Source of the DNA: Janibacter indicus
GTDB taxonomy: Bacteria; Actinomycetota; Actinomycetes; Actinomycetales; Dermatophilaceae
Assembly (NCBI RefSeq): GCF_900176385.1
Contig: NZ_FWXN01000001.1
Coordinates: 1 to 64,000 of the forward strand
DNA: 64,000 nt
Reading direction: 5' to 3'
Below are positions 1 through 22,584 of this stretch, one piece after another. The position numbers were made by a program, and so were the translations under genes. The notes under the pieces were generated by a model. It was not told the DNA's origin. It searched no databases and saw only the letters and a program-made list of their open reading frames with translations. Within the stretch, counting starts at the first letter, position 1. The number at the start of each line of letters is the position of its first letter.

Positions 1-711
1 GTGTGCGGGTCGGGAGTTCTTCTGGGTCACGCCCAGGGCGGCCAGGTGGGTTTCGAGGGCGTTCTTGCCGCCGCGGCCGCCGGCCAGTCGGGTGGTGAAG
101 ACCATCCCGTTGTCGGTCAGTGTGCTTGCGGGGCAACCGTGTTCGTCGATGGTGGCTTGGAACGCGGCCAGCACGATCGGGCCGGTGACTCGGGTGTGGG
201 CACTGATGTGCAGGGCGCAGCGGGAGTGGTCGTCCAGCCAGGTGAGGATTTCCACGTCGCGGCCGGTGACCAGACGGTAGTGGGTGAAATCGGACTGCCA
301 GGTCTCGTTGGGTTGCTCGGCTTCGAAGCGGATGTAGGAGGACTTCGGGCGCTTCTTCGGCTCTGGCACCACGCGTCCTGCTCGGGTCAGGATGCGGTTG
401 ATCGTGGCTCGGGAGGTCGTGACGTCGTGGTGGTGACGCAGGTGCCAGCCGATGGTCTCGGCGCCGGCGTCCAGGCCCCGCGCGCTCAGCTGGTCACGTA
501 GCTGCAGCACGAGGGCGACCGTGGCCTGCGGGGTCGCGTTCGTGGAGGTTGCGGGGCGACGGGAGCGAGGCTCGAAGGCCTGCTCGCCCTCGGCGCGGTA
601 GCGGGCCATCAGCTTGCTGATCCAGCCCTGAGAGACGCCATAGGTCCGGGCAACCTCGGACTGTGACTGGCCGGCCAGGACCGCGGTGATCACGAGACGA
701 CGTTTCGACAT
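1..711 (-). CDS. IS481-family transposase, 3' end cut off by window edge
   Basis: The minus strand is open from an ATG at 711 to the left edge, 237 codons without a stop, so the C-terminus lies outside. The protein begins with helix-turn-helix segments (MSKRRLVITAVLAGQ, then SEVARTYGVSQGWISKL) and continues into an rve integrase core. DFTHY carries the first catalytic Asp (about residue 141) and TDNG the second (about residue 200); the final Glu would be beyond the edge. This order is that of IS481 transposases, which cut and join IS ends with a DDE active site. Whether the element is intact cannot be judged here. It lies just upstream of an acquired-looking defence cassette. Confidence 0.88.
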   Translation of the reverse strand, partial: MSKRRLVITAVLAGQSQSEVARTYGVSQGWISKLMARYRAEGEQAFEPRSRRPATSTNATPQATVALVLQLRDQLSARGLDAGAETIGWHLRHHHDVTTSRATINRILTRAGRVVPEPKKRPKSSYIRFEAEQPNETWQSDFTHYRLVTGRDVEILTWLDDHSRCALHISAHTRVTGPIVLAAFQATIDEHGCPASTLTDNGMVFTTRLAGGRGGKNALETHLAALGVTQKNSRPAH

Positions 712-730
712 GCCCCAGCATCAGGACCCA

Positions 731-800
731 CACCATGCCGATGTCGTGAGACACCCCTATTCCAATGACTCGAGACACCCCATTCCGATGTCCTGAGCCA
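731..800. repeat. Iterated repeats at IS481 end
   Basis: Three imperfect 23-24 bp direct repeats follow one another at 731-753, 754-777 and 778-800. Read on the minus strand they share the core TCTC..G.CAT.GG.AT with a following GGTG. They sit directly upstream of the transposase start, so they are probably the terminal transposase-binding region, with the outer IS tip near 798-800. No target duplication can be checked because the other end is outside the window. Confidence 0.55.
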
Positions 801-825
801 GCACACTGCCCCCGCTACCAAGTAG

Positions 826-860
826 GGCCCCTGACCAGCGGAAACGTTCGGTCAGGGGCC
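826..860. terminator. Perfect 11-bp hairpin, probable terminator
   Basis: Arms GGCCCCTGACC (826-836) and GGTCAGGGGCC (850-860) pair perfectly around a 13-nt loop, followed by GTTCGTTTGT. The location just outside the IS end suggests it is the terminator of the gene that the IS landed beside. There is no long T tract. Confidence 0.5.
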
Positions 861-1447: not shown

Positions 1448-2779
1448 GTGCCCCATTCCCCATCGTCGATTGCAGCCGGTGCGCCGCCGTACGCGGTCGC
1501 TCTGGCTGGGCGAGCCGCTTCTGCCAGCAGGGTGGTTATTTACGCTGGCGCTGGTATTAGCGTTTCGCCTCCGACTAGCCTTCCCACGGGAGCCGGCCTT
1601 GCGAAGGCGCTTCATTCGCAGCTCAGCGAGGTCTTCGGCGTCCTGAGTGACGTTGATGATTGGGACCTCTTGGGGATCGCCGATGCCGTAGCGCGACTTC
1701 CGGGTGGCGAAGATGCGCTACGGCAAGCATCATCTCGCTCTGCCAATTTCAGGTCGGCGGTGCCCGGTTACGCACATAGAGTCTTGGCCCAGCTCATGCT
1801 TGAAGGCGCGATCGACGTACTGACGACTAACTGGGACAGTTGCATCGAGCGTAGCTCTGGAGAGGAAGAACTGCCCACGGTCACGAATGAGTCTGATCTC
1901 GCCGATGTGACACCACCCTGGGTTCTGAAGGTCCACGGATGCGCTTCAAGGCCGGGAACGCTTCTCGTGACGACGGATCATCTGGCCAATCCTCCCACTT
2001 GGGTTCAGGAGCAGACGCACGCTCGCCTTGGATCCGCTGTGGTTGTGTTCATCGGAATTGGAGACATCGCGCCGTACGTGCGGCAGCGCGTCGTCGAAGC
2101 TATCGGCGAGATCGGTTCGGTGGAAAATATCCGGGTCGTATCCCCGAGCATTAGCTCGGATTGGGACAACTCCCCATGGAAGGCCGTGGCTCCGGATCTT
2201 CGACCGGAGCACAGAATCGGAGTGTCGGCTGACCAGTTTATGGAGGAACTTGGGTCGGCTTACATTTTCGCTAGACTCGCAGAACACAGTTCGACTTGCG
2301 GCCCGGACCTGTCCGTGAAGCTCGATGATGCAAAGAGCGTTCTATTTAGGGCCGATTCATTGGCAGTACTGCAATGGTCCCGCGCCATAGACATCAACCC
2401 GCGAGCGGGTGAATCCGTCCTGAGGAGTTCAGAATTCGGCAAGCTGCTCATAGCCCTGGGCCACCTCATTGGCGACTCCGGAGAGCTCAGAAACAGCCGA
2501 GTATTCGACACCGCGATCGGTCCCGTAGAGGTCTTGGTGTCGACGCAAACCGTTCCAATGCGGAGGCTTGTTGAGGCTGCAAGGGAGCGCCTGCACGGAC
2601 ACATCAGCAAGGGTGAACCGTCGCCGCTGTTCATAGTTTCAGGTGGGATAGGGGCCATGTCCGAGCCAGATGAACTTCCGCCCAGCATCGTGGAGGATGC
2701 TGATGATGCGGATATTGTCGACGGGCCACTGGCGCTTGTGCCAAATGTTAGGCACGCGGATGAGGTGATCGCGTCGTGA
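1448..2779 (+). CDS. SIR2-domain effector of a Lamassu-Sir2 / ABC-3C defence system (LmuA-like)
   Basis: The 443-residue protein has an N-terminal SIR2-like domain. The NAD-binding signature IYAGAGIS is at residues 31-38, TTNWD at 126-130 holds the Asn used by NADase sirtuins, and KVHGC at 161-165 holds the His. In phage defence such domains hydrolyse NAD+ and cause abortive infection. The C-terminal half (about 240-443) matches nothing I recognise and is probably the part that contacts the partners. It is first in a three-gene unit; its TGA overlaps the GTG of the next gene (GTGA, 2776-2779), implying coupling. The GTG start follows a TAGGAT box and looks leaderless. Codon use is less GC-biased than the backbone, consistent with acquisition. 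Confidence 0.82.
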   Translation: MPHSPSSIAAGAPPYAVALAGRAASASRVVIYAGAGISVSPPTSLPTGAGLAKALHSQLSEVFGVLSDVDDWDLLGIADAVARLPGGEDALRQASSRSANFRSAVPGYAHRVLAQLMLEGAIDVLTTNWDSCIERSSGEEELPTVTNESDLADVTPPWVLKVHGCASRPGTLLVTTDHLANPPTWVQEQTHARLGSAVVVFIGIGDIAPYVRQRVVEAIGEIGSVENIRVVSPSISSDWDNSPWKAVAPDLRPEHRIGVSADQFMEELGSAYIFARLAEHSSTCGPDLSVKLDDAKSVLFRADSLAVLQWSRAIDINPRAGESVLRSSEFGKLLIALGHLIGDSGELRNSRVFDTAIGPVEVLVSTQTVPMRRLVEAARERLHGHISKGEPSPLFIVSGGIGAMSEPDELPPSIVEDADDADIVDGPLALVPNVRHADEVIAS

Positions 2780-3342
2780 ATGCCGAGCGAACCGACGCGC
2801 ATTCAGATGGGGACCTGCTCAATCTTGCTAAAGCCGTTCTGTCGGAGCAAGGTTTTCACATCGAGAGCGTGAACGCGAATGTAAAACTCCTTCTCGCTGA
2901 GAACAGTTACTTCGTGGTGGCCGTTGCAGCTATGAGCACCACCCGCGATCTGGTTCTTGCCGAGTCGGCCGCTTTCAATGTCCTTGTCGACCGCATCGAA
3001 TCAGTAGCGCTCGGCCCGAAGAAATGGGACACCTATCTTGTGCTGTTGACTCAGGAGAATTTGGCGGAGGATGACGACGTAACGCGTGACATATATTCAA
3101 TCAACTACGACACCTCCAGGCTTCGGCGCATAGCGCACACAGGCGTCGCTGCCACGCCGAAAGCGGTTGGTCATGCCCTCGCACCGTTCTTTGAACCGGC
3201 AAGTTCCGCGATGTCAGCGGCACAGGACGACGCACTCGACGAGCTGCTGAAAGTTCTTGTTGCGCGAGGAGTCGATCATGACCTCGCCCACCGTTCTGTT
3301 GCCGCATTCGACCAAGGGGCATCGCTCGATGACATACTCTGA
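2776..3342 (+). CDS. Small middle component of the defence cassette (LmuC-like)
   Basis: This 188-residue protein starts at a GTG overlapping the SIR2 gene stop and runs 14 bases into the ATPase gene. I see no catalytic motif. It has an alternating alpha/beta N-terminal region (LLLAENSYFVVAVAAM) and an acidic C-terminus (DQGASLDDIL). Size and place, between an effector and an SMC-like ATPase, match LmuC or the middle component of ABC-three-component systems, which bridges effector and ATPase. The function is inferred from context only; the sequence alone would be called hypothetical. Confidence 0.65.
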   Translation: MNAERTDAHSDGDLLNLAKAVLSEQGFHIESVNANVKLLLAENSYFVVAVAAMSTTRDLVLAESAAFNVLVDRIESVALGPKKWDTYLVLLTQENLAEDDDVTRDIYSINYDTSRLRRIAHTGVAATPKAVGHALAPFFEPASSAMSAAQDDALDELLKVLVARGVDHDLAHRSVAAFDQGASLDDIL

Positions 3343-5470
3343 GCCCATAATTAGCCGCATGCGCGTGGAGTCGTTTCGCGGCTTCCGGGACGCTCGCGAG
3401 TTTGATCTTTCGGCTGCATCGGTTGTCGTGACTGGCCCGAACGGCACAGGCAAAACGAGCTTCTTCGATGCGCTGCAGTGGGGCCTGCTTGGGAGCTTGG
3501 AACGACTTGAGACCCTTCGTGCTCGACGCAACACCGAACATGTGGTGAACCAATACCGGCTAGGGCGTAAGGCGTCGGTTGAGATCGACCTCATGCTTCC
3601 GTCCGGGCAAGTGACCATCCGGCGCACTGGTGACCAAGGTGGAAGTACTCTTGAGTTGCGGACGAGCGGTCAAGATCCAATCTTCGGCGTCGAAGCCGAA
3701 GGGGCGCTGCGGGGGTTGTTGCTGCCTGAATCGGAAGTGACCCTGGAATCTGCCCTGGCCACATCAGGTCTCATGCAGCAGGACGTCATGCGGCGGGTTC
3801 TTGAAGCCAAGCCTGCCGACCGCTACCGACAGTTGAGCACTGTGCTTGGGCTCGGTGCCCTCGAGGACTTCGAGGACGCGGCCAAGTCGGTCGCAAAGCT
3901 GGCATCTGATCGTGAGAAGTCTGCACGGGCGGAGCGCGAGCGGCTGGCGGGTGCACTGGCACAGGCGAGGGTCCGTTGGGAGGCCGCGAGGGCGAAACTA
4001 GCTGCACGCCCGCAGGTGGCGGCAATTAGTGCCGAGGTGGCCGCTACTTTGGCTGCGGTCCCTGTGGGCATCCACTTCGTCGGTACCGGGCTGACGTTTG
4101 ACAACCCCGACGCCGTTCGCGCCACTGCGGCCGCCTTTGCGGAGACAATTGACGCGGTGGATGCCGCGCTGGGCCTCTCCCGCAAGGCTGTTGAACTTAG
4201 TATCGATCTCGCGAACGAGCCCTCTGAGGAGCAACTCACTGCTCTACGCGCCGAAGCCGATCGAGCCGAAGCTACACGCGGCGCCGCTGAGACGACATGC
4301 GAGGTCGTGCAAGGGCAGCTGAATGCGGCACGACAAGCTGCGGCGGATGTAGCCCAGCTTGCAGCATTGGCAGTCCCGCTCCTATCGGATGATTGCCCCG
4401 TGTGCGGCCAAAGCATCGATCGCGAACATGTGGAACGTGAATTGAGGGAACGGGCCGAGGCCACCGGAGCAATTTTGGAACTTGAGCAAACTCTGGTCCG
4501 CGTGACGGGCGAATTGTCCGACGCTGCAGGCGCGGCTGAAGCGGCCCGAGAGATCCGTGACTCTGCTGAGCGACGAGCTGGCCAATGGCGGCAAGCGCGC
4601 GAGGCCGAGCGTGTGGCGGACGCGGCGGTGAGCGCTCTCGCGGAGGACGTGAGAGTGGTTCGCTTCGATCAGTACACACTGGAATCTTTCGTCGTGGCTG
4701 CTGGCCCGGCGTTGGAGTACTTCCGTCGGGCTCGTCGTGCCCTGATCGATCTGCTGGACACGTTTGACCGGCAGTCGGATCAGGGCGTCATCAATCGCGC
4801 GGATGCAGAGGTCAAGAGTTTGAAGGTCGCGCTCAAGTCGGCCGAAGCGGTGTTGGTGGCTGAGTCGGCGCGATCTCAGAAGCTTCAGACTCTGTCCGAG
4901 CAGACACTTGAGGCGCGGGTTGAGGTGACGGAGGCCCGGCTACGCTCCATGCAGCCGTTGGTTGCAAACATCTTCCAGCGGCTCGATCCTCATCCGGCGT
5001 TTAAGACTGTGGAGTTCGAACTAGCCACCTACTATCGAAGGGGTACGACCAGCCCGCTGGTAATCGATCAAGTGGAGAATGTCTCCGCCGACCCGCTCTT
5101 GATCTTCTCCACCTCGCAAGCAAATATCGTTGCGCTGTCCTACTTCATCGCAATGAGCTTGTCGTCAGGGGAGAGGGGCTTGCCTTTCCTCTTGCTTGAT
5201 GATCCCGTTCAGTCGATGGACGACGTGAATGTTCTCGGGTTTGCTGACCTCTGTCGCCATCTTCGTCTGCGTCGACAACTGATCGTCTCAACCCACGAAC
5301 GTCGGTTCGCGAGCTTGCTCGAGCGTAAACTCGCGCCGCGAGATGGAGACTCTCGAACGAAGATGATCAGGTTCACTGGCTGGGACCGCAGCGGTCCGAC
5401 AGTGGAGGAGTCCACGGTCGACGCCCAGTTGCTCGACGATCCGATTCGCCTCGTCCGCGTGGCTGGGTGA
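3329..5470 (+). CDS. SMC/Rad50-like ATPase of the defence cassette (LmuB-like)
   Basis: The 713-residue protein opens MTYSEPIISRMRVESFRGF, the usual start of RecF/SMC ATPases. It has a Walker A motif GPNGTGKTS (36-44), a long coiled coil broken by a zinc hook CPVC (356-359), and a C-terminal lobe with STSQANIVALS and Walker B LLLDDPVQSMDD (about 620-632), followed by VSTHERRF. In Lamassu the LmuB ATPase senses foreign DNA ends or structures and releases the effector. I chose ATG 3329 because AAGGGG lies 10 nt upstream; the frame is open further upstream to 3257 inside the previous gene, but that region does not look coding. Confidence 0.82.
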   Translation: MTYSEPIISRMRVESFRGFRDAREFDLSAASVVVTGPNGTGKTSFFDALQWGLLGSLERLETLRARRNTEHVVNQYRLGRKASVEIDLMLPSGQVTIRRTGDQGGSTLELRTSGQDPIFGVEAEGALRGLLLPESEVTLESALATSGLMQQDVMRRVLEAKPADRYRQLSTVLGLGALEDFEDAAKSVAKLASDREKSARAERERLAGALAQARVRWEAARAKLAARPQVAAISAEVAATLAAVPVGIHFVGTGLTFDNPDAVRATAAAFAETIDAVDAALGLSRKAVELSIDLANEPSEEQLTALRAEADRAEATRGAAETTCEVVQGQLNAARQAAADVAQLAALAVPLLSDDCPVCGQSIDREHVERELRERAEATGAILELEQTLVRVTGELSDAAGAAEAAREIRDSAERRAGQWRQAREAERVADAAVSALAEDVRVVRFDQYTLESFVVAAGPALEYFRRARRALIDLLDTFDRQSDQGVINRADAEVKSLKVALKSAEAVLVAESARSQKLQTLSEQTLEARVEVTEARLRSMQPLVANIFQRLDPHPAFKTVEFELATYYRRGTTSPLVIDQVENVSADPLLIFSTSQANIVALSYFIAMSLSSGERGLPFLLLDDPVQSMDDVNVLGFADLCRHLRLRRQLIVSTHERRFASLLERKLAPRDGDSRTKMIRFTGWDRSGPTVEESTVDAQLLDDPIRLVRVAG

Positions 5471-5838
5471 GGCAGGAAGCAGAAGTTCGATCGCTGTGTT
5501 CTCTCTCATTGGCCGCGGCGGGCCCCGCAGGGCCGGGGGCGCCCGCTGATCGGTGGGGAGTCCTGGACTGGGGCGCGACTGTGCCGCCATCCTCTACCCC
5601 GTCCCTGCGGTCCTCTGCGAGTAGGGCGCGATCGTCGTCGCGGGCCCGATGTCGGTGCGCCCGCTGCGGCATTCATCGCTTCGGCGCCTTCGACGACCCG
5701 TCGGCGGCGCTGCTCGCCGACAAGGCGGAGTTCCAGCGCAACCGTGCCGCCGGTGGTTCGGCACGGACTGAGCCACGTCGGCGTAGCGATGGGAGAGCCT
5801 TCGTCAAGAATTCACCTTGGTGGGGGATCCTTCCCGCC
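5471..5838. other. No gene recognised
   Basis: The plus frame of the downstream gene stays open through this stretch, but the first half reads as Arg/Ser-rich noise. A protein-like fragment (FGAFDDPSAALLADKAEFQR, about 5690-5750) has no recognised family. It is probably a remnant at the right border of the defence cassette. Confidence 0.35.
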
Positions 5839-7008
5839 GTGACCACGCCACCGGCCCTGCTCCCTTCGCTCCTCGCGAGTGACCGCGCGCCCGCGCCCCG
5901 CACGCTCGTCGACATCTTCATGGGCGTCGTCGAGGAGCACCCCGACGCGCCGGCCGTCGACAGCGGCCAGGAGATGCTCACCTATGCCGAGCTGGCCGAG
6001 GCCGCGACGGCGCTCGCCGAGTCGCTCGCGGAGCTGGGCATCGGGCCGGGGGACAAGGTCGGGGTGCGCATCCGCTCCGGCTCGACCGACCTCTACGCCG
6101 CGATCATCGGCACGATCCTCGCGGGCGCCGCCTACGTGCCCGTCGACGCCGACGACCCCGACGAGCGGGCCCGGGTGGTCTTCGAGGAGTCGGCGGCCGC
6201 CGCGATCATCGGCAACGATCTCGTCATCACGACCACCGCTGTGGGACAGGGGCGCTCGCTGATCGAGCCCGCGCCGCCAGGGACCGACGACGACGCCTGG
6301 GTGATCTTCACCTCCGGGTCCACCGGCAAGCCGAAGGGGGTCGCCGTCACCTACCGCAATGCCGCCGCCTTCGGCGGGCCGGGCCTGCTGACCCCCTTCG
6401 AGATGGCGGTCCGCGAGCCCGAGGGGGTGGTCCGTGACCTCTTCCTCGAGCAGGGGCCGCTCGCGACGCGGCAGCGACCGGACCCGCTGTGGGCGGACCT
6501 GCAGGAGGGTCGCCTCAGCGAACGGGAGTACTGGGCGCGCAAGGCGCAGGCATGGCACGAGGCCGGGGGTTCGGCCCCCGACGTGCCGGTGATGTTCGCG
6601 TCGCTCTACTCGCCGCCCGGCCCGCGGATGATTCGCCCGCAGGCCCGCGCGCTGCTCGCCGACGCCCTCGCGGCCGGTCGTCGCACGGCGATCCTCGCCA
6701 ACGACATGCGCGCCTTCCACACCCAGGACTGGATCGACGGCACGGAGATCATCCACACCGTCGACGTCATGGTCGACGGGTCCGTCGAGGGCGTGCTCAA
6801 GCCTGACCCTGAGCTGTACCGCAGACTCGCGCAGCGGCTCGGCGTGGACTTCGCCGACATGGTCTTCGTCGACGACCAGCCGCACAACATCGCGGGTGCC
6901 GAGGCACTCGGCATCCCGGCGGTGTGGTTGGACGTGACGGATCCGGACGCGTCCTTCGACCGGGCGCGCACACTCATGGGACTGGACGAGGTGGTCCGCG
7001 ATGGCTGA
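5839..7008 (+). CDS. Chimeric protein: truncated adenylation domain fused to HAD-like hydrolase
   Basis: From the GTG at 5839 the protein is 389 residues. Residues 1-177 are the start of an NRPS-type AMP-binding domain (LTYAELAEAA, PGDKVGVRI, GAAYVPVDADD, core A3 TSGSTGKPKG at 158-167). From about 178 it becomes a HAD-IA-like hydrolase (FGGPGLLTPFEMA, then FVDDQPHNIAGAEALG). The rest of the adenylation domain and everything after A3 are missing. The HAD nucleophile Asp, expected just before FGG, is replaced by Ala (NAAAFGG). It looks like an in-frame deletion between two neighbouring genes, and the product is probably inactive in both reactions. It overlaps the reductase gene by 8 bases. The start is uncertain because the frame is open back to 5467. 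Confidence 0.6.
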   Translation: MTTPPALLPSLLASDRAPAPRTLVDIFMGVVEEHPDAPAVDSGQEMLTYAELAEAATALAESLAELGIGPGDKVGVRIRSGSTDLYAAIIGTILAGAAYVPVDADDPDERARVVFEESAAAAIIGNDLVITTTAVGQGRSLIEPAPPGTDDDAWVIFTSGSTGKPKGVAVTYRNAAAFGGPGLLTPFEMAVREPEGVVRDLFLEQGPLATRQRPDPLWADLQEGRLSEREYWARKAQAWHEAGGSAPDVPVMFASLYSPPGPRMIRPQARALLADALAAGRRTAILANDMRAFHTQDWIDGTEIIHTVDVMVDGSVEGVLKPDPELYRRLAQRLGVDFADMVFVDDQPHNIAGAEALGIPAVWLDVTDPDASFDRARTLMGLDEVVRDG

Positions 7009-21342: not shown

Positions 21343-22584
21343 ATGACTGCCACCCTCGAGCGCACCCCCCGCACCACCGACGCCCGCATCACCGGCGGAC
21401 GGTCCGAGGTCGTCCACACCCGCGTCAACGCGACGGACGACCCCATCGCCCACCTCACCCCCGAGGACATCGAGGAAATCGGGCGCGAGCTCGACGAGAT
21501 CCGCGCCTCGGTCATGGACGACCTCGGCGAGACCGACGCCCGCTACATCCGCCGGATGATCACCACCCAGCGCTACCTCGAGATGGGCTCGCGCGCGGTG
21601 CTGCTCTTCAGCGGCAACCCCATCGCCTGGGTCGCCGGAACCGCCGGGCTGAGCGTCGCCAAGATCCTCGACAACATGGAGATCGGGCACAACATCATCC
21701 ACGGCCAGTGGGACTGGATGCGCGACCCCAAGATCCACTCCTCGGTCTGGGAGTGGGACAACGTCACCCCCGCCGACCACTGGAAGAACAGCCACAACAA
21801 GGTCCACCACACCTACACCAACGTCGTCGGCCACGACAACGACCTCGGCTACGGGATCATGCGGGTCGACGACGCCCAGAAGTGGTACCCGGCCTACCTC
21901 GCGCAGCCGCTGCTCAACTTCGTCAACGCGACCTTCTTCGAGTACGGGATCGCCGCCTACGACCTCGAGCTCGGCGCCAACTGGAAGACGCGCAAGGACA
22001 ACCCGCAGTGGCAGGCCGAGGCCAAGCAGGTGGTCAACAAGATCAAGAAGCAGGCCGCGAAGGACTACCTGCTCTTCCCGCTGCTGTCCGGCCCGAACTT
22101 CTTCTCCACGCTCGCCGCGAACTTCGTCTCCAACATCGTGCGCAACTACTGGACGCACTCGGTCATCATGTGCGGCCACTTCCCGGCGGGGGTCAAGACC
22201 TTCACCAAGACCTCGATCGACGGGGAGACCCGCGGCGAGTGGTACCTGCGCCAGATGCTCGGCTCCGCCAACATCTCGGGGTCCAAGGCCATGCACATCG
22301 CGACCGGCAACCTCAGCTACCAGATCGAGCACCACCTCTTCCCGGACATGCCGAGCCGCCGCTACCAGGAGATCGCGCCGCGCATCCAGGCGCTCTTCGA
22401 CCGCTACGGCCTCGACTACGTCACGGGCCCGCTGCACCGCCAGGTCGGCTCGGCGTGGAGCGAGATCATCCGCCTCTCCCTGCCCAACGACACCTCGCTG
22501 CGCCAGACGGTCCAGATCCTGGCGACGAAGGGGATGAAGGGCCTCAAGGCGCGCGCCCGCGCCACCCGCTTCCGCCCGGCCTGA
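21343..22584 (+). CDS. Membrane acyl-CoA (Delta9-type) fatty acid desaturase
   Basis: The 413-residue diiron membrane enzyme has three histidine boxes: H116-NII-H120 in GHNIIHGQWDW, HNKVHH at 151-156, and QIEHHLFP with H330-H331. Hydrophobic segments lie between (NPIAWVAGTAGLSVAKIL, FSTLAANFVSNIVRNYW). It inserts a double bond in acyl chains to adjust membrane fluidity, using electrons from the reductase encoded just upstream. The C-terminus is basic (KGLKARARATRFRPA). Confidence 0.92.
   Translation: MTATLERTPRTTDARITGGRSEVVHTRVNATDDPIAHLTPEDIEEIGRELDEIRASVMDDLGETDARYIRRMITTQRYLEMGSRAVLLFSGNPIAWVAGTAGLSVAKILDNMEIGHNIIHGQWDWMRDPKIHSSVWEWDNVTPADHWKNSHNKVHHTYTNVVGHDNDLGYGIMRVDDAQKWYPAYLAQPLLNFVNATFFEYGIAAYDLELGANWKTRKDNPQWQAEAKQVVNKIKKQAAKDYLLFPLLSGPNFFSTLAANFVSNIVRNYWTHSVIMCGHFPAGVKTFTKTSIDGETRGEWYLRQMLGSANISGSKAMHIATGNLSYQIEHHLFPDMPSRRYQEIAPRIQALFDRYGLDYVTGPLHRQVGSAWSEIIRLSLPNDTSLRQTVQILATKGMKGLKARARATRFRPA

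What the first reader, a model, noticed from the sequence alone, without database searches (positions are those of the whole stretch)
1448..5470. Lamassu-Sir2-like three-gene defence cassette at an IS-bordered island
A SIR2 NADase-like protein, an unrecognised 188-residue middle protein and a Rad50-like ATPase with CPVC zinc hook are joined by overlaps of 4 and 14 bases. The order and types match Lamassu-Sir2 / ABC-three-component systems. The codon bias is weaker than in the backbone, and an IS481 element lies just upstream. The middle protein and the C-terminal half of the SIR2 protein resemble nothing I can name, so this may be a divergent branch.
Basis: partly seen in the sequence, partly recalled or inferred. 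Interest (0 to 1): 0.8.

Follow-up and report, generated by a model that had tools for sequence, protein, structure and literature searches.

The report
Actinobacterial SIR2–Lamassu-type three-gene defence cassette
This is a mobile three-gene cassette, found intact in four actinobacteria, that most likely senses foreign DNA with a Rad50-like ATPase and then destroys the cell's NAD+, a seldom-seen branch of the known Lamassu anti-phage/anti-plasmid systems.

Summary
In detail: SIR2 (1448-2779), a 188-aa middle protein (2776-3342) and a Rad50/SMC-like ATPase with a CPVC hook (3329-5470) overlap by 4 and 14 bases. The ATPase matches PADLOC LmuB (6e-50) and falls far below SbcC/Rad50 cut-offs. The middle protein matches no Pfam, PADLOC or NCBIfam model, but profile comparison links it, through rhizobial SIR2-middle-ATPase operons, to ABC-3C Middle Component 1/LmuC. 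Its moderate-confidence model weakly resembles a PD-(D/E)XK fold lacking (D/E)xK. SIR2 motifs are invariant in seven aligned proteins. The cassette is AT-richer than its surroundings, was not found in 15 same-genus genomes, and lies beside a 13-base tRNA-Met repeat and an IS481-type element, at a site that varies among relatives. Verdict: a new, divergent member of the known Lamassu/ABC-3C kind with a SIR2 effector. NAD+ depletion and defence are inferred, not shown.

The parts
1448..2779 (+). SIR2-domain effector (LmuA-like position), 443 aa
   Evidence: Pfam SIR2_2 6.1e-9 at residues 124-224; 51-65% identity to three co-operonic homologues
1547..1561 (+). SIR2 motif GAGxS (residues 34-38)
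   Evidence: G34 A35 G36 S38 invariant in 7 aligned SIR2 proteins
1823..1837 (+). SIR2 motif TTNWD (residues 126-130), putative catalytic N128
   Evidence: T127, N128, D130 invariant in 7 of 7
1925..1939 (+). SIR2 motif LKVHG (residues 160-164), putative catalytic H163
   Evidence: L160 K161 H163 G164 invariant in 7 of 7
2776..3342 (+). middle component, 188 aa, divergent ABC-3C MC1/LmuC-like
   Evidence: no library match; hhalign 97% to short-group rhizobial middle proteins, which reach MComp1; AF2 model pLDDT 72.9
3329..5470 (+). LmuB-like SMC/Rad50-type ATPase, 713 aa
   Evidence: PADLOC LmuB 6.4e-50
3434..3457 (+). Walker A GPNGTGKT (residues 36-43)
   Evidence: G36 N38 G39 G41 K42 invariant in 8
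4394..4405 (+). zinc hook CPVC (residues 356-359)
   Evidence: C356 P357 C359 invariant in 8; CPxC present in 21 of 22 ATPases in the wider set
5198..5224 (+). Walker B/D-loop DDPVQSMDD (residues 624-632); Asp where ABC ATPases usually have the catalytic Glu
   Evidence: D624 D625 P626 V627 Q628 and D631 D632 invariant in 8; a DDP motif in 20 of 22 ATPases
1..711 (-). IS481-type transposase, cut by the contig start; the element end lies near 807
   Evidence: rve 2.1e-15 and HTH domains; window 446-808 recurs at 98% on contig C27 and then diverges
808..820 (+). 13-base copy of the tRNA-Met 3' end, att-like repeat
   Evidence: identical to the end of the tRNA-Met on contig C13; the only exact match in the window
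5811..6376 (+). resumption of genus backbone (AMP-binding gene), right edge of the insertion
   Evidence: 89.6% to G008, where it follows tRNA-Met directly

Best explanation
A mobile defence cassette of the Lamassu/ABC-3C kind with a SIR2 effector. The Rad50-like ATPase (LmuB-like), dimerised through its CPVC hook, binds abnormal or foreign DNA during phage infection or plasmid entry. The middle protein bridges ATPase and effector. DNA-bound, ATP-engaged ATPase heads release the SIR2 protein, which hydrolyses NAD+ and stops or kills the infected cell (abortive infection). Shown here: gene order, conserved motifs, homology of the ATPase to LmuB, indirect homology of the middle protein to MC1/LmuC, co-inheritance, constraint, and patchy occurrence with mobile-element neighbours. 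Inferred: DNA sensing, complex formation, NADase activity, defence.
For: LmuB profile 6e-50. Four intact copies with the same order and the same 4/14-base overlaps. dN/dS 0.06-0.17 in the 12 of 18 pairwise comparisons where dS was finite. SIR2 motifs invariant in 7. Middle protein to short-group rhizobial middle proteins 97%, and from these to MC1 92%; 0 of 60 column shuffles reach either score. All three proteins match their counterparts in rhizobial plasmid operons. The Arthrobacter copy is followed by a C5-DNA methylase and a DUF1156 gene; the G830 copy lies between a coupling-protein gene and a TrwC-type relaxase gene. A review describes Lamassu as LmuA effector (sirtuin among the listed types), LmuC/MC and an LmuB of about 650 aa that often has the hook (PMC10586767, passages).
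Against: No PADLOC, Pfam or NCBIfam model recognises the middle protein, and none recognises the effector's C-terminal half. Direct hhalign of the actinobacterial middle proteins to MC1 is only 40%, and adding the long rhizobial group to the query profile drops the MC1 link to 8%. The shuffle control is lenient: the weak pair with the long rhizobial group (1.5%) also beat all 60 shuffles. C-terminal halves of actinobacterial and short-group rhizobial SIR2 proteins do not align convincingly (0.85%), although the full-length profiles do (98%). The SIR2 structure model failed (pLDDT 36.7). Walker B has Asp, not the Glu-to-Gln change the review calls general for LmuB; however L025 and L017, whose effector and middle protein match PADLOC LmuA and LmuC, also have Asp. 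tblastn of the ATPase against phage records found nothing. No functional data.
Confidence: 0.77

Rival explanations
1. The same machine, but selected mainly for competition between mobile elements: it keeps out plasmids or rival integrative elements and rides on them, rather than protecting against phages.
For: The G830 copy sits between conjugation genes; ATPase relatives occur on 54 plasmid records, 33 of them typed conjugative; the review says Lamassu also restricts plasmids.
Against: By eye I recognised no conjugation gene in the mechanical ORFs around the Arthrobacter and Mycobacterium copies; apart from the two Arthrobacter genes these ORFs were not searched with models. Both roles can hold together.
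Confidence: 0.13
2. A housekeeping DNA-repair or NAD-dependent deacylase operon with a Rad50-like ATPase.
For: Zinc hook and SMC_N domain.
Against: Not found in 15 same-genus genomes; middle protein in 2 of 394 genomes of the class, own included; NCBIfam SbcC/Rad50/CobB scores far under their cut-offs; no fourth gene in the cassette that could be an Mre11/SbcD partner; low G+C.
Confidence: 0.04
3. An independent SMC-SIR2 system that resembles Lamassu only by convergence of parts.
For: Middle protein and effector C-terminus are not recognised by LmuA/LmuC models.
Against: LmuB match 6e-50; the middle protein reaches MC1 through rhizobial intermediates; I-x-x-D-x4-R pattern with R117 at least 90% conserved over 22 middle proteins.
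Confidence: 0.06

Closest known systems
Lamassu with a sirtuin effector / ABC-three-component (ABC-3C) systems
   Same: Effector-middle-ATPase order, hook-bearing short SMC-like ATPase matching LmuB, SIR2 named among LmuA effector types (PMC10586767 passages)
   Different: Middle protein and effector C-terminus unrecognised by the library models; Asp in Walker B, though Asp is also seen in PADLOC-positive systems
Rhizobial SIR2-hypothetical-AAA operons on plasmids (e.g. Rhizobium ruizarguesonis TA1, L029)
   Same: Same order, overlapping genes, all three proteins homologous
   Different: 21-27% identity; ATPase signature FSSGQ and no STHE motif, against FSTSQ and STHE here; 4-base instead of 14-base second overlap
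ABC-3C Middle Component 1 (PF20289 MComp1) systems
   Same: Middle-protein profile link; ATPase head similarity
   Different: Other or unnamed effectors; ATPases of 982-1045 aa in the four with one intact ATPase gene
Thoeris ThsA / Dsr2 SIR2 effectors
   Same: SIR2-type domain
   Different: Scores of only 18.8 and 23 bits (Dsr2 cut-off 1400); an SMC-like ATPase as partner instead of the TIR protein of Thoeris (partner recalled)

Membership tests
Lamassu / ABC-3C | LmuB-type SMC-like ATPase | tested here: met
   PADLOC PDLC03865 6.4e-50, PDLC03859 4.3e-43
Lamassu / ABC-3C | Order effector - small middle component - ATPase in one operon | tested here: met
   4 of 4 actinobacterial copies with overlaps of 4 and 14 bases
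Lamassu / ABC-3C | Middle protein homologous to LmuC/MC | tested here: inconclusive
   No direct library match for the window protein; indirect link through rhizobial proteins 97% then 92%, with a control that is somewhat lenient
Lamassu / ABC-3C | LmuA: N-terminal effector domain of a listed type | tested here: met
   SIR2_2 6e-9; sirtuin listed in PMC10586767
Lamassu / ABC-3C | LmuA C-terminal docking domain | tested here: inconclusive
   C-terminal half conserved among the four copies but matches no Pfam/PADLOC model; docking not testable
Lamassu / ABC-3C | Zinc hook CPxC (many, not all) | tested here: met
   CPVC; CPxC in 8 of 8
Lamassu / ABC-3C | Walker B Glu-to-Gln (said to be general, not defining) | tested here: not met
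   LLLDDP, Asp; PADLOC-positive L025 and L017 also have Asp
Lamassu / ABC-3C | Restricts phage or plasmid by abortive infection | not testable with these tools
   needs experiment
SbcC/Rad50 repair ATPase | Family score above the curated cut-off | tested here: not met
   sbcc 22.5 of 478.5 bits; five Rad50 models 9.5-26.1 bits against cut-offs of 453.75-1087
Dsr2/Dsr1 | Family score above the curated cut-off | tested here: not met
   22.6 and 11.3 of 1400 bits

The most novel reading that the evidence does not exclude
A separate branch of DNA-triggered SIR2 systems, shared by Actinobacteria and rhizobia, in which the middle component is a catalytically dead PD-(D/E)XK (restriction-enzyme) fold that acts as the DNA-reading or bridging part between a Rad50-like ATPase and an NAD+-destroying effector.
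Probability: 0.3. Interest if true: 0.55.

Novelty: new member of a known kind. Interest (0 to 1): 0.42.

Why it matters
It shows a Lamassu-type system with a SIR2 effector in Actinobacteria of which the library models used here recognise the ATPase as LmuB but not the other two genes as Lamassu parts, so it may be counted as an orphan ATPase. The four intact copies and the rhizobial intermediates would allow better models of the middle component and of the SIR2-type LmuA, and offer a compact cassette for testing whether a DNA-sensing Rad50-like ATPase directly switches on an NADase.

Tried and rejected
AF2 of the SIR2 protein with 3 sequences failed (pLDDT 36.7), so no fold claim is made for its C-terminal half. 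Foldseek of the middle-protein model gave no match at E <= 0.001 and TM-scores of at most 0.45 among the 50 rows shown; the PD-(D/E)XK reading rests on the helix-strand order and weak hits (XisH, YqgP N-domain, BspD6I small subunit among the first five; later rows are mixed), whose membership in that fold I recall. A PDB profile search with 22 middle proteins gave nothing better than E 0.55. LmuC family PDLC03873 in 148 genomes and 14 controls rang nowhere, so it says nothing about absence. Single-protein viral-contig scans found no relative; the alignment scan found two distant ABC-3C-like systems (L017, L018) and two further ATPase matches, L019 and L020, not followed up. The long rhizobial middle proteins do not link to ours (1.5%), and C-terminal halves of the SIR2 proteins do not align across groups; both count against one uniform family. 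hhalign at this depth is also insensitive: the phage-contig middle proteins, one of which matches MComp1 in Pfam (2.9e-10), score 0.05% against MC1. Eight genomes among the relatives with only weak, partial ATPase matches (G020, G021, G025, G038, G045, G047, G052, G054; best E 6e-8 to 8e-4) were taken as carrying other SMC-type ATPases and not followed up. The weak G1447 middle-protein match (7.7e-5, two in-frame TAG) showed only a 78-residue match to the middle protein and none to SIR2 or the ATPase in 14 kb, and was dropped. Inserts at the same chromosomal site in G007, G009, G010 and G012 were read only as mechanical ORFs by eye; I recognised no such cassette, so I do not call the site a dedicated defence hotspot. 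Rows dropped before comparisons: ATPases of L018 and L031 (each in two pieces) and L041; middle proteins of L041 and L043; effectors of L027, L032, L041 and L043 (L032 and L041 were tested later).
Full report
Observation. SIR2: Pfam SIR2_2 6e-9. Middle protein: no match. ATPase: SMC_N 1.4e-16, AAA_23 2e-12. PADLOC places the ATPase with LmuB (6e-50, 4e-43) and gives only weak SIR2 matches (Dsr2, PDC-S65, Aga_SIR2, ThsA) for the effector. NCBIfam SbcC, Rad50, SMC and Dsr2 models are far below their cut-offs.

Co-occurrence. The middle protein was sought in 394 genomes of the class (2 matches, own included), 397 of the order of G322 (2 matches, G322 and G830) and 396 of the window's own order (2 matches: own, and a weak one with two stops, dropped). 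The genome-contig scan with the ATPase alignment gave two loci: Mycobacterium sp. GA-0227b (the same contig as G322 by length and place) and Arthrobacter sp. S39. So four distinct places carry full-length relatives, and all four carry the whole cassette: effectors 443-446 aa, middles 188-189 aa, ATPases 713 aa, overlaps exactly 4 and 14 bases. Identities to the window: SIR2 51-65%, middle 52-63%, ATPase 59-72%. Synonymous sites are near saturation; where dS was finite (12 of 18 pairs) dN/dS is 0.06-0.17, so the genes look constrained and not like remnants. The SIR2 protein alone found only its own genome among 396 of the phylum at E 1e-10.

Wider relatives. tblastn of the ATPase against plasmids gave 54 records, 30 of them Rhizobium, Agrobacterium or Ensifer, 33 typed conjugative, none with 80% coverage. 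I read 19 of these 54. Twelve of the 19 have a SIR2-middle-ATPase arrangement: eight annotated as SIR2 (L028, L029, L033, L034, L035, L038, L039, L040) and four (L032, L036, L041, L042) whose effectors match those by BLAST. L043 has an IS21 element upstream of a short ORF and the ATPase. Five (L025, L026, L027, L030, L031) are annotated as ABC-3C middle component 1 systems with other or unnamed effectors. L037 has a different two-gene layout. A separate SIR2 search gave one plasmid (L024), whose annotated neighbours do not form this cassette. BLAST links each window protein to a counterpart in the short rhizobial group (L029, L036, L040): ATPase 5e-25, SIR2 2.6e-9, middle 1e-4 (Arthrobacter middle to L029 2e-8). 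The same ATPase against phage records: no match.

What the middle protein is. hhalign: four actinobacterial middle proteins against three short-group rhizobial ones 97.2% (E 9e-11); short-group against five annotated MC1 92% (8e-8); actinobacterial plus short-group against MC1 87%; actinobacterial alone against MC1 40%; with the long rhizobial group added 8%; actinobacterial against the long group 1.5% and the phage-contig pair 0.5%. A three-sequence profile against L040 alone gives 65%. In 60 column shuffles for each of five pairs none reached the real score, and reversed profiles stayed under 0.2%; this control is lenient, since the 1.5% pair passed it too. Pfam MComp1 is met at E <= 1 by 10 of 22 middle proteins, not by the window's: L040 7e-6 (26.2 against cut-off 27.3), L036 0.003, L029 0.0043; the other three actinobacterial ones none. 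PADLOC calls LmuC on four of five MC1 proteins and weakly on L029 (0.0049), not on L036 or L040. Over 22 middle proteins R117 is at least 90% conserved, within an I-x-x-D-x4-R consensus. The AF2 model (pLDDT 72.9, pTM 0.60, three sequences) has the order helix-strand-strand-strand-helix-strand. Among the first five Foldseek rows are XisH, the YqgP N-domain and BspD6I proteins, but none has E <= 0.001 and TM-scores are at most 0.45 in the rows shown. By inspection the third strand (residues 46-53, FVVAVAAM) has no (D/E)xK, so if the fold is right it is probably not a working nuclease. This is tentative.

Effector and ATPase. GAGxS, TN128xD130 and LK161xH163G are invariant in seven SIR2 proteins, the residues expected for NAD binding and hydrolysis in SIR2 enzymes (assignment recalled). 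Full-length actinobacterial and short-group rhizobial SIR2 profiles match at 98%, their C-terminal halves alone at 0.85%. The C-terminal half is conserved among the four copies but has no model match. In the ATPase Walker A, CPxC and DDPVQ..DD are invariant in 8; in the wider set 20 of 22 have a DDP motif and 21 of 22 CPxC. The usual catalytic Glu is thus Asp, which differs from the Glu-to-Gln described as general in PMC10586767 (passages); L025 and L017, whose effector and middle protein match PADLOC LmuA and LmuC, also have Asp.

Setting. The cassette genes are 56-61% G+C against 69.4% for 5811-64000. The ATPase was not found in 15 same-genus genomes, some of them drafts. In G008 the order is UPF0182-type gene (name recalled), tRNA-Met, AMP-binding gene, with no insertion. 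In the window's genome the UPF0182-type gene and tRNA-Met end contig C13, and the AMP-binding gene resumes at window 5811. Window 808-820 repeats the last 13 bases of that tRNA; with up to one mismatch the window has two matches (the other, at 22355, has one mismatch), shuffles average 0.13, and 2 of 100 reach two. In the capped list both flanks are seen in nine of 15 relatives: three contiguous or nearly so (G008, G002, G004), three with about 4, 5 and 17 kb between them (G009, G007, G012), one with the flanks on two contigs and 20 kb of sequence upstream of the AMP-binding gene (G010), and two on separate contigs and not resolved (G011, G015). In the other six only the tRNA side was listed. 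So this is a variable insertion site beside tRNA-Met. The joining of C13 to C22 is inferred.

Literature. PMC10586767 (passages) describes Lamassu as effector, LmuC/MC and an LmuB often with a zinc hook, and lists a sirtuin domain among effectors. PMC11084316 (passages) and PMC10286901 (passages) describe Lamassu as abortive infection. PMC10952713 (passages) lists Lamassu under SMC ATPases and, in the passages seen, not among Sir2 systems. A search for 'Lamassu-Sir2' returned 0 papers and the ABC-3C terms 2. The original classification paper was not held, so I cannot say whether this exact branch is already in it.

Verdict. The cassette is real, patchily distributed with mobile-element neighbours, constrained, and most likely a Lamassu/ABC-3C system with a SIR2 effector. 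It is a divergent member of a known kind. NADase activity and defence remain inferred.

Noticed in passing
window 5467-7008: One ORF joins the first part of an AMP-binding gene to a HAD-type hydrolase; in G008 the same start belongs to a 1290-aa gene, so a deletion has apparently fused two genes here.
   Followed up: partly
L074 (G000 contig C27) 1-5817: Small contig with a tyrosine integrase, an SSB and a conjugative coupling protein, sharing 364 bases (98%) with the window's IS element end; possibly part of an integrative element at the same tRNA-Met.
   Followed up: partly
window 820-860: Hairpin-like stretch (ggcccctgacc...ggtcaggggcc) directly after the tRNA-Met 3'-end repeat, like a tRNA terminator; G008 has a different hairpin there.
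   Followed up: no
L016 6327-10692: The Arthrobacter copy is followed by a C5-DNA methylase and a DUF1156 gene, possibly a defence island.
   Followed up: no
L025 8305-10498: In Agrobacterium fabrum Kin001 plasmid pAt3 an ABC-3C system is followed by TIR, SIR2 and TIR genes.
   Followed up: no
L023 3376-4344: DUF2971 gene beside the G830 cassette inside a conjugation region.
   Followed up: no
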